This document shows positions 31,801-34,800 of a stretch of DNA of 64,000 nucleotides, piece by piece. The stretch's first letter is position 1; every line of letters begins with the position of its first letter. The notes under the pieces were generated by a model that did not search any database, was not told where the DNA came from, and saw only the letters and a list, made by a program, of their open reading frames with translations. The stretch is taken from contig NC_060253.1 in assembly GCF_921293095.1 (NCBI RefSeq), positions 75,925,992-75,989,991 of the forward strand, in the 5' to 3' direction. The DNA is from Ischnura elegans. Lineage: Eukaryota > Arthropoda > Insecta > Odonata > Coenagrionidae. A program made the translations under genes and the position numbers.

Positions 31801-34800
31801 TCAGGAATCTTTAGTTCATGAAGCTATGCAAGGCATCGAGAAGTTCGTTTATCTTGCAGAATGCAACACTGCATTACAATTGTGAATAAACTCTCTTTGT
31901 GACGAACTGATCTAGCTGGGCGTGCAACGCAGCCGGAGCCGAAAAAAATCGTTGTCCGCGGGAAGGAGGAACGGGTGAAATGCTGAACAGTTCCTGAATT
32001 CATCTCAGATTAAGTAATACTTTGTTCAGATCATGCCCAAAGTGCGAGTTCCTTTACGCCACACCTTGTCGCATCGGCCTACTCGAAAGGTGCCAAATTT
32101 GAAATTTCGGGCTCCCTTGAACTTTTTCCTATATTAGTATCTCTAAAAGTTCTTAAATCTTATATTCATAAGTAGAGGACTTACTTTATGCCCAATGTAT
32201 GAGTGGTAATGAGTGGGTCACCATGATTCAGGCATGAAGCTTATCATATGATGCTGCGTGCATACTGAAGTATCTCTGACTGAAGAAAGAACCATAATTG
32301 ATGCTCTTGGGCCCAGTACACAGGGAGAACTTAAACGTAGCTAAATGATTATAACGTAGCGTTCTGTATATCCATCTAAATGCCGTTGCTTATACGTGAA
32401 ACTTTGTTATAAAGTTTACTTTGTAACTGCCTGTTTGTTTGTAATTTTGTAAAAACGAAAATTTCGTAATAGCATTTCTTTTACCATAGTTTGGATAGAC
32501 TGTATCGTAGGGACCAACGATTTGCTTCTTAATTATAAGAACTTCGTAATAAGGCTGTTCGTAATGGCAAGTGTCTACTGTAGTTGCCTCCCTGCTTTTT
32601 GGAAGCTAAATTTTGATATTATACATATTTTTATTAGAAACTCTTAGTGCAAAAACTCAGGAAAATGAAGATAAATTTTAGGACATCATCAAGCATATGC
32701 TCTAATCTTTAATTCATGGAGTTATTTTCCCTAGACCCTGCTGGAATAACTGTCTGTGATGTTGCCCCATACTCCACTCTAAATTTTTTCCCTGGAACAC
32801 TACTTTTTGGGGTTATTAATTCGGATGTAAAAATATAAGTTTTCATTAATTCTATTGCCTATTTCTCAGTACTACTTGGTCTTTAATATTTGTGGCTTTT
32901 GCTTTTTTTATATTTAGAAGCCCCTTGATATTTTTTCCATATCTTTCTTCAAATATTACCAATGTTGGTGCTACATTCAAGATATGTTTCAATTGGTCTT
33001 ATTTTAATTCAGTTTTGGTGGTTCTTTCTCACCAATAACCACCCTTAACTTCTGTAAATAGAATATTTTGTAATGCTGTCATTGTTTAATACCTTTGTTT
33101 TGTATATTTATCCTTCTTAATGTGTTGTCATTGTTAATATATCATTATTTATATTTTTAGGTTTGCACTTTGCTGAAAGAGGTCGAGGAAGCTAGGGGTG
33201 GCTTTGTCGCTCCATCACGAGATGATCAAATGGTCACCTCCACCATGGAGTCCTCGGCTTCTCAGGTAAGTTTGTTCCTTTCCTGTATTTCAAATGGAAA
33301 AAATAATGAGTAATGCTTTGATTCTGTTGAAAATTTCATCCCATCGCATGATCATTCAAAACTTGGTTGATACTCTAATAGACACGCTAATCATTCTCAC
33401 GTTCTCAGTTAACATCTTATTTAGTGTTGCTATGTACTCTGGTGCTTTTTCTATAGAAGGTTGAGCATAACCTAATCCAGAAGCTACAGATTTGAGGCCA
33501 TTTTAAACTGCGTAGACCACTCTTTTTTATGTTTAACCCATACACTATATACCATTCACCTAAAGCCTTGTGTGTCATTTCAACAGTTACTTTTTTTTTC
33601 TTTTTTTTTAAGTTATGAGCTTAGCTTGATGCAAATTCATGGAATTGTTTTCTTCGTCATTGGTAACAATGGCATGGTAAAAGAAAATTTTTATTTTTTG
33701 TTAAAGTAAAATTCTGATGGTTACCTTGAGAAACCCATGAGTTATTGAAGAGTTTCTGGTTATACTCATACCTCTTTGAGGTCACTTGAATGTTCATATG
33801 GAGAATTATGAAGGGAGGTGGTATACATGTGGGACTGACCTTGCAGTGAATAGCCTCATTGAAATTTTTACTATAGGGGATGCATACTCTATGGGGAAAC
33901 ATACCTAGATCGTGTGGTTCTGCTCCTTATGTTTTGTTGGTATGGTGTCTATCACACTTATGCCTTCGGCTTCTTTTGTGAAATGCTCCCTCTAGAAATA
34001 ATATTAATAAATTTATTGTCCTAGGACCTTGTTCTATGGAACATAATACATTTTACAAATAAGTCTCAGCAGTGAACAACAAAGAAAAAGTAAAATACAA
34101 TTTTACAGAATTAATTATACATGGTATTACATTATTTCAATTACAATTGTATTTTTCAAGTATATAAATGTACATTTTCATTTTTCATTGATTTACAGTG
34201 TTACGATGCACAAAGGTTAAGAAAACACTTAGCTGTTTCACAAAATAAAATATATTGCGGCCGGTTTCGATACAGCGTATCAGATGATGATACGCTGTAT
34301 CGAAACCGGTCGCAATATATTTTATTTTGTGAAACAGCTAAGTGTTTTCTTAACCTTTGTGCATCATGAAGGAGTTTCACCATGTTACGCCAACCACCAT
34401 CGCATTAACAGTGTTACAATTAATAATGTCGTCCGGTATTTTATTCCATATTCTTATCGCAGAGTTTAAGGTTGACAATTGGTACATTGTAGTTCGGCAA
34501 TTTGGAATTCTAAGTCGTCTTCTAGCTCATACTATTCTACAAGTTTCACTCTGGTGACATATAATCACTTTATAAAGATTATCAGGTGTTCTGGATGATT
34601 TTATATACAAACACAGATAGCGGGCTAAGTAATTCCTATAGCTCCCCTTAGTCCCAGTTAACATTAGGAGGGTGATTTTTGTTTTTATGTTATATGATTT
34701 GAAGTGTGCATGTATTTTGTGTAATTACTTTAAAAAAGGGTGAATGATCTTGTGGGAATTACAAGATGTCCCAGACGGAGTTAGTCTTGGATTAAGTGGA

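What the first reader, a model, noticed from the sequence alone, without database searches (positions are those of the whole stretch)
34205..34365. Hammerhead-ribozyme-like core at the centre of a 161-bp palindrome in TPR intron 8
The centre folds on paper into three stems in hammerhead order: CCGG/CCGG (stem III), GATAC-AGC-GTATC (stem I), GATAC-GCT-GTATC (stem II) with TTTC before stem I, CAGATGAT between I and II, and GAAA after II. Only one core position (CAGATGA for CTGATGA) departs from consensus. Hammerheads of the CUGAUGA...GAAACCGGUC kind are known from Penelope-like elements and retrozymes. Here the motif is locked inside a long inverted repeat, so it may be a fossil ribozyme captured as a fold-back element, or coincidence created by the palindrome.
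Basis: partly seen in the sequence, partly recalled or inferred. Interest (0 to 1): 0.7.

Follow-up and report, generated by a model that had tools for sequence, protein, structure and literature searches.

The report
Two-armed Penelope insertion with hammerhead relic
The palindrome is a short insertion of a Penelope-like retrotransposon, probably copied once from each side of the broken chromosome, and it carries a damaged self-cleaving RNA motif that belongs to that element rather than arising by coincidence.

Summary
Confirmed: 34205-34365 is an almost perfect palindrome (78-nt arms, one mismatch). It is part of a 203-bp insertion (34205-34407) with a 10-bp target duplication. The genome (1.72 Gb) has 235 places matching this palindrome's centre pattern. 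Longer copies exist, and one read here leads up to a GIY-YIG coding region, so this is a Penelope-like element (PLE). The unit is a 5' leader below a TATA box plus a 42-bp 'tail' that reads as the start of the ORF.

The hammerhead is real but not as drawn. It lies in one arm (34281-34311, + strand). The family core is CAGATGA: 100 of 100 listed copies have A, and no exact copy has T. The window copy also lacks the upstream strand of stem I. The genome has 1,727 CTGATGA...GAAACCGGTC motifs, mostly of sister families (reversed control: 1).

Of 70 two-armed insertions examined, 67 have exactly one tail, 0 two, 3 none. In 14 of 39 short events the tail-less arm reaches further into the centre, and 9 of 39 centres have no loop. 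This contradicts simple snap-back and favours priming from both chromosome nicks at two RNA sites. That fits published PLE biochemistry and differs from the self-priming proposed earlier.

The parts
34195..34204 (.). left target-site duplication ACAGTGTTAC
34205..34282 (-). tail-less arm: inverted copy of unit positions 85 to 8, outer end at GATGCAC
34281..34365 (+). tailed arm, unit positions 1-85: 5' leader (pLTR) of the Penelope-like element; overlaps the other arm by 2 bp at the centre
34281..34311 (+). hammerhead relic CAGATGA-T-GATAC/GCT/GTATC-GAAACCGGTC (U4 changed to A; upstream strand of stem I absent in this copy)
   Evidence: model R1 hit 34273-34319, 38.1 bits, E 1.3e-8; sister families
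34251..34291 (-). second, weaker hammerhead relic in the tail-less arm (5' core missing)
   Evidence: model R1, 16.9 bits, E 0.029
34366..34407 (+). PLE 'tail', 42 bp, reading MKEFHHVTPTTIA(L), taken as the start of the PLE ORF; right end of the insertion (1-2 bp uncertain because it merges with the target duplication)
   Evidence: sister tails
34408..34417 (.). right target-site duplication ACAGTGTTAC

Best explanation
The window holds a short two-armed insertion of a Penelope-like retrotransposon. A transcript starting about 30 nt below a TATA box (near unit position 1) is copied by the element's RT from two internal start sites about 40 nt apart: position ~124-128, inside the ORF start (gives the tail), and position ~85, just before the ATG (no tail). 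One chromosome nick primes at the first site and the other nick at the second. Both cDNAs run towards the 5' end of RNA from the same source. Their free 3' ends are then joined head to head, often through 2 bp of homology or with a few filler bases, which gives TSD - inverted arm (85 to 1) - direct arm (1 to 128) - TSD. The hammerhead sits at the 5' end of this leader because that is its place in the element. In this family its core carries A instead of U4, and transcripts starting at position 1 lack the upstream strand of stem I, so it is most likely inactive in the inserted copy. Shown by sequence: the anatomy, the family, the two end positions, the one-tail pattern, the junctions. Inferred: the start site of the RNA, priming from both nicks, end joining, loss of cleavage.
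For: Identity: GIY-YIG ORF directly upstream of the leader in one copy, L107/L071 (PF01541 E 1.4e-4, 22.5 bits, just under its cut-off of 22.6). Exact target duplications of 8-17 bp in 39 of 40 palindromes (the search let the ends slide a few bases) and of 8-14 bp in 13 of 14 long copies (those of L110 and L111 sit at odd offsets and may be chance).

Two outer ends: 40 of 40 palindromes retrieved with a tail-free query have exactly one tail; 8 of 8 in sister families; 13 of 14 long two-armed copies (L109 has none); 6 of 8 in a further set (L126 and L127 have a truncated arm and no tail). Total 67 of 70, and none with two tails.

Inner ends: of 39 short events the tail-less arm reaches further in 14, the tailed arm in 15, equal in 10. 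Of 14 long copies, 5 are continuous palindromes with inner ends 13-19 nt apart, the tail-less arm being longer in all 5.

Zero-loop centres CATCTGGCCAGATG: 9 of 39. 31 of 39 have at least one arm reaching position 1 or beyond. 2-bp overlaps in 22 of 39 against 20% expected, or 13 of 30 without the nine symmetric ones.

Close hammerhead pairs are head to head: 20 of 20 (listing) and 20 of 21 (listing), 0 convergent.

Same source for both arms: 3 insertions carry a private substitution in both arms. [quoted passage not shown]
Against: No transcript or enzyme data exist for this species here; start site and priming are inferred. PMC11167929 saw no difference in RT start between top and bottom strands in vitro, whereas the one-tail pattern needs the two ends to differ.

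Nine of 14 long copies have a central segment of 193 nt or more present only once. In the clear cases (L110, L111, L112, L116, L119) it continues the tailed arm. Snap-back with a long loop would give that too, so these copies do not decide, and they differ from the even split in the short ones.

Centres can be altered after insertion by hairpin processing, so inner-end asymmetry in short palindromes is weaker evidence than outer ends. The held-out set met the one-tail prediction in only 6 of 8. In one search, substitutions confined to one arm outnumber shared ones, which fits later mutation but does not prove a single template. The 40 palindromes are the best-scoring of 583 candidates, not a random sample.
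Confidence: 0.72

Rival explanations
1. Snap-back of a single cDNA: the first-strand cDNA reaches the RNA 5' end, folds back on itself and copies itself, giving a hairpin that is sealed into the target.
For: It gives head-to-head inverted arms. The window centre itself (TATCA GATGA TGATA, tailed arm longer) could be read as a 5-nt loop primed by 2 bp. In the long copies with a large central single-copy segment (9 of 14) the clear cases have the longer arm on the tailed side, as a long-loop snap-back would.
Against: The copied arm cannot contain more than the first arm, and a tail cannot be copied from a tail-less arm. Yet the tail-less arm reaches further inside in 14 of 39 short events and in 5 of 5 near-equal long ones. 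Nine of 39 have no loop at all. It gives no reason for the copied arm to stop at position ~85 instead of copying the tail.
Confidence: 0.13
2. Self-priming on an antisense transcript, as proposed for rotifer Penelope palindromes (PMC3846280, Discussion).
For: It explains head-to-head orientation and palindromic junctions; the authors noted possible antisense promoters (PMC3846280).
Against: Both arms would come from one molecule with one outer end, so tails should be on both arms or on neither. Observed: exactly one tail in 67 of 70, two in 0.
Confidence: 0.08
3. A foldback DNA transposon or MITE with long terminal inverted repeats.
For: Near-perfect inverted repeat with a target duplication and high copy number.
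Against: The insertion is asymmetric: one end carries a 42-bp tail. Single-armed copies and a GIY-YIG-linked copy exist. Centre and arm lengths vary by insertion, and target duplications vary in length.
Confidence: 0.02
4. The palindromic copies are offspring of one palindromic master RNA copied as a unit.
For: Nine of the 39 share an identical symmetric centre, and the same centre recurs in the listing.
Against: Many different centres with fillers of 1-6 nt and different inner ends need many separate joining events. Single-armed copies of the same unit exist.
Confidence: 0.05

Closest known systems
Canonical EN-containing Penelope-like elements with inverted pLTR and optional tail (Adineta vaga Pen families; PMC3846280, passages and Discussion read)
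   Same: Head-to-head inverted pLTRs, palindromes at the junction, TSDs of 8-10 bp, a 31-bp tail optionally on one of the inverted pLTRs, tail reading into the ORF, TATA box in the pLTR.
   Different: Here short two-armed copies number in the hundreds (235 places), whereas that paper reports very low copy numbers; and the ends found here do not fit the self-priming origin proposed there.
Poseidon of Anolis carolinensis, PAc (PMC11167929, parts 1-2 of 4 and passages read)
   Same: Two adjacent internal RT start sites near the ORF start defining the tail; both target strands cut and extended; hammerhead near the start codon; insertion does not need the hammerhead in vitro.
   Different: There the main start region lies 111-118 bp into the ORF and no strand difference was seen. 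Here the ends lie just before the ATG and about 40 nt in, one at each end of an insertion.
Minimal type I hammerheads of PLEs and metazoan retrozymes (PMC7229834 and PMC6155905, passages read)
   Same: Type I layout, minimal form without a looped helix III; here GAAACCGGTC offers the self-complementary ACCGGT, which would suit a dimer (inference).
   Different: U4 is A in every listed family member; metazoan retrozymes are described as tandem repeats going through circular RNA, these are dispersed head-to-head pairs with TSDs.

Membership tests
Penelope-like element (EN-containing) | GIY-YIG endonuclease in the element ORF | tested here: met
   One copy: L107 ORF of 178 aa followed by the family's 3' region and leader; PF01541 E 1.4e-4, 22.5 bits, cut-off 22.6
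Penelope-like element (EN-containing) | Penelope-type reverse transcriptase | not tested
   No full-length copy was read
Penelope-like element (EN-containing) | pLTR with optional 30-40 bp tail, inverted arrangement, TSD around 8-15 bp | tested here: met
Penelope-like element (EN-containing) | Hammerhead motif in the pLTR | tested here: met
   Model R1 from sister families finds it; core departs at U4
Hammerhead ribozyme (catalytic) | Core CUGAUGA...GAAA complete | tested here: not met
   CAGATGA in 100 of 100 listed of 353; 0 exact copies with T
Hammerhead ribozyme (catalytic) | Stems I and II, with covariation across the sister families | tested here: met
   Sister alignment of 12: covariation score 0.419, shuffled mean 0.223, 0 of 500 shuffles as high; stem I ATTGC/GCAAT in longer copies of this family, though the 47 nt are no more stable than shuffles (z 0.34). 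The window copy lacks the 5' strand of stem I
Hammerhead ribozyme (catalytic) | Rfam hammerhead covariance match | tested here: not met
   None in the window or in the longer copies scanned; none either in sister-family loci with CTGATGA cores (gathering threshold), so uninformative
Hammerhead ribozyme (catalytic) | Self-cleavage | not testable with these tools
   Needs an RNA assay
Retrozyme | Tandem repeats of a hammerhead-bounded unit | tested here: not met
   Close pairs are head to head: 40 of 41 in two listings, 1 tandem

The most novel reading that the evidence does not exclude
Penelope-like elements insert by two-sided target-primed reverse transcription: each nick primes its own cDNA, one at each of two fixed internal RNA sites, and the two cDNAs are joined at the RNA 5' ends. 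The 'optional tail' and the inverted pLTR are then two faces of one event, and a family whose hammerhead core is broken has still spread to hundreds of copies, so cleavage is dispensable in vivo.
Probability: 0.52. Interest if true: 0.65.

Novelty: new member of a known kind. Interest (0 to 1): 0.5.

Why it matters
How Penelope-like elements complete insertion after first priming is described as not yet validated (PMC11167929). The very short two-armed copies in this genome act as a natural record of both ends and the joint of single insertion events. They help separate two-sided priming from self-priming by sequence alone, and the spread of a family with a changed hammerhead core suggests that cleavage is not needed.

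Tried and rejected
Rfam scans of the window and of 9 loci gave no hammerhead; most matches were miRNA-type hairpin models below their gathering scores. A scan of 12 loci, 10 of them sister-family loci with CTGATGA cores, also gave none at gathering thresholds, so I built a model from the sister families instead.

Folding the isolated 47-nt hammerhead region gave no unusual stability (z 0.34), although stems I and II appear in the fold.

A tandem pair at C1:92842143/92845802 looked like a full-length element, but no PLE reading frame was recognised in the 4.2 kb (L085, by eye). L106 likewise.

Considered and dropped: hammerhead cleavage as the source of the common 5' end (the cleavage site would be about 30 nt further in); template jumping to a second RNA (gives direct, not inverted, repeats).

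Corrections: the two L020 insertions carry the same target sequence in mirror image and were counted once in the 39 events. In one search, L022 and L026 failed the anchor and L034 was misread; one search replaced that junction analysis. In one search the random tail-score control is spoiled, because random positions sometimes fell on real tails. For the pair counts I left out one row (C1:73154745) that overlaps its neighbour.

Paper searches touching two-sided or twin priming in Penelope: no title or opening of an abstract in the listings proposes it. Most listed papers, including the three, were not opened, and the library lacks most subscription journals.

Full report
Observation. The palindrome is real: two 78-nt arms, 99% complementary, 5 nt apart, at 34205-34282 and 34288-34365. 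As RNA it folds into one long hairpin, -134.3 kcal/mol against a shuffled mean of -29.9, not into three stems. It is flanked by ACAGTGTTAC on both sides, but the right copy lies 42 bp beyond the palindrome (34408-34417). The inserted unit is therefore 34205-34407 and is asymmetric.

Family. The whole genome in which the window lies (1.72 Gb) has many copies (only 40 of 583 candidates scored). I fetched 38 regions holding 39 further palindromic copies. No two of these loci share flanks by megablast over 300 nt on each side; the two copies inside L020 are mirror images with the same target sequence. The basic unit is 128 bp. Some copies have a single arm with no inverted part beside it (for example L048, L051, L056, L058 among the 20 loci). 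Genome-wide, 235 places match a symmetric centre pattern of this family (235 on each strand, control 0).

What the unit is. Longer copies continue upstream of position 1 through TATAAATTCTGTGTACTGATACTTGTAATTGC and, in several, about 300 nt of further common sequence. In one copy this leads to a 178-aa reading frame with a GIY-YIG domain (L107). The 42-bp tail reads ATGAAGGAGTTTCACCATGTTACGCCAACCACCATCGCA..., MKEFHHVTPTTIA. Two sister families end in the corresponding MKEFHYVSPDTIEF (L078) and MDFQKVKPETIEF (L080), with third-position differences between the first two (read), as expected of coding sequence. No complete ORF was read. This is the pLTR-plus-tail layout of Penelope-like elements described in PMC3846280, including the TATA box in the pLTR. 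The T of TATA lies 31-33 nt above positions 0 to 2 (counted by hand), a normal promoter distance (recalled), so the 5' end of the unit is best read as the transcription start.

The hammerhead. Longer copies show ATTGC-CAGATGA-T-[GATAC GCT GTATC]-GAAACCGGTC-GCAAT, a type I hammerhead with stem I of 5 bp, stem II of 5 bp and a self-complementary ACCGGT in place of a looped stem III. The genome holds 893+834 exact CTGATGA-N(6-30)-GAAACCGGTC motifs (reversed pattern 0+1) of several kinds. Across 12 sister sequences the two stems covary (score 0.419 against 0.223 shuffled, 0 of 500 shuffles as high; slid versions at most 0.125); relatedness can inflate this. A model from those 12, none of them from this family, was run on 18 sources. 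Of the 14 long-type loci of this family among them, 12 score 50.0 bits (E 3e-12), L076 48.3 and L034 43.4; the window arm scores 38.1. In this family the core reads CAGATGA: 353 places match the extended pattern with any base at that position, all 100 listed have A, and none has T. The extra T after CTGATGA is shared by most sister sequences and is not a defect of this family. U4 is part of the uridine turn of the core (recalled), so cleavage is expected to be lost or weak; this was not tested. The CTGATGATGATACGC row of the listing is a by-product of a shortened palindrome centre (L103), as are L023 and L033.

How the palindrome forms. Three facts bear on it. (a) Outer ends: the tail-free query led to 40 palindromes, and 40 of 40 have the tail on exactly one arm, the other arm ending at about position 85. 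The same holds in 8 of 8 sister-family pairs (L077-L084) and in 13 of 14 long two-armed copies (L108-L121; L109 has none). For a further test I wrote the prediction down first. Of the 20 places chosen, 8 could be fetched. Six have exactly one tail; in two (L126, L127) an arm is cut short before the tail position. In L123 the tail-less arm starts at about position 37. L122 has the same 12-bp duplication as L044 and is not independent of it. In all, 67 of 70 have one tail, 3 none, 0 two. (b) Inner ends: among 39 short events the tail-less arm reaches further in 14, the tailed arm in 15, and 10 are equal. Of the 14 long copies, 5 are continuous palindromes whose inner ends differ by 13-19 nt, with the tail-less arm the longer in all 5; 9 have a central segment of 193 nt or more that is present once. 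In the clear ones of these nine (L110, L111, L112, L116, L119) the segment continues the tailed arm; L109 has no tail, and L118, L120 and L121 are rearranged further. (c) Joints: 22 of 39 overlap by 2 bp (20% expected from all breakpoint pairs; 13 of 30 when the nine symmetric centres are left out), 3 by 1 bp, 5 are blunt and 9 have fillers of 1-6 nt. Nine have the symmetric centre CATCTGGCCAGATG with no loop.

Snap-back of one cDNA cannot give a tailed arm shorter than the tail-less one, nor a centre without a loop, and it gives no reason for the second arm to stop at position ~85. It could, with a long loop, give the nine long copies with a single-copy centre; those do not decide. Antisense self-priming, proposed in PMC3846280, predicts equal outer ends. 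Template jumping gives direct repeats. Priming from both nicks, each at its own RNA site, followed by end joining, fits all three facts. It also matches the purified Anolis enzyme: two adjacent internal start sites bounding the tail, and extension of both target strands (PMC11167929). That paper saw no start-site difference between strands, which is a point against a strict rule. Three insertions share a private substitution in both arms (L012, L021, L032), so in those both arms come from RNA of the same source.

Orientation in general. In two genome-order listings, neighbouring hammerhead motifs within 5 kb are head to head in 20 of 20 (99 places entered) and 20 of 21 cases (100 places), with one tandem and no convergent pair. 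The head-to-head arrangement is therefore the usual one where PLE hammerheads lie close together here.

Standing of the claims. Identity of the insertion is close to certain. The relic hammerhead is very likely by homology. The two-sided mechanism is an inference from ends and joints, without enzyme or transcript data from this species. Hairpin processing after insertion could have altered some centres. The host gene label TPR was not confirmed, and the organism was not identified.

Noticed in passing
L108, L113, L114, L115, L117: In all five long palindromes with nearly equal arms, the tail-less arm reaches 13-19 nt further than the tailed arm; a constant offset may reflect an enzyme footprint at the RNA 5' end or break.
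   Followed up: partly
L110, L111, L112, L116, L119: In long two-armed copies with a large single-copy centre, the longer arm is the tailed one in these five clear cases, unlike the even split in short copies.
   Followed up: partly
L077-L084 and the listing: Several sister Penelope-like families with CTGATGA cores and head-to-head pairs, one tail in each of the eight read, are abundant in this genome.
   Followed up: partly
L020:2005-2169 and L020:7761-7925: Two copies with the same target duplication in mirror image 5.6 kb apart, pointing to an inverted duplication of the host segment.
   Followed up: partly
L044 (C4 near 76.7 kb) and L122 (C1 near 305 kb): Same 12-bp target duplication and neighbouring sequence near the ends of two contigs, suggesting a shared subtelomeric segment.
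   Followed up: no
L023, L033, L103: Shortened palindrome centres recreate CTGATGA by accident at the joint, giving a false intact-looking hammerhead core without stem I.
   Followed up: yes
L118, L120, L121: Long two-armed copies with further internal rearrangements (extra inverted or missing pieces) not resolved here.
   Followed up: no
window:24941-25387 (-): ORF ending resembles mitochondrial ribosomal protein L36 (recalled, not searched).
   Followed up: no
window:19071-19808 (-): 245-aa ORF with only weak zf-AD and helix-turn-helix matches, possibly transposon-derived.
   Followed up: no
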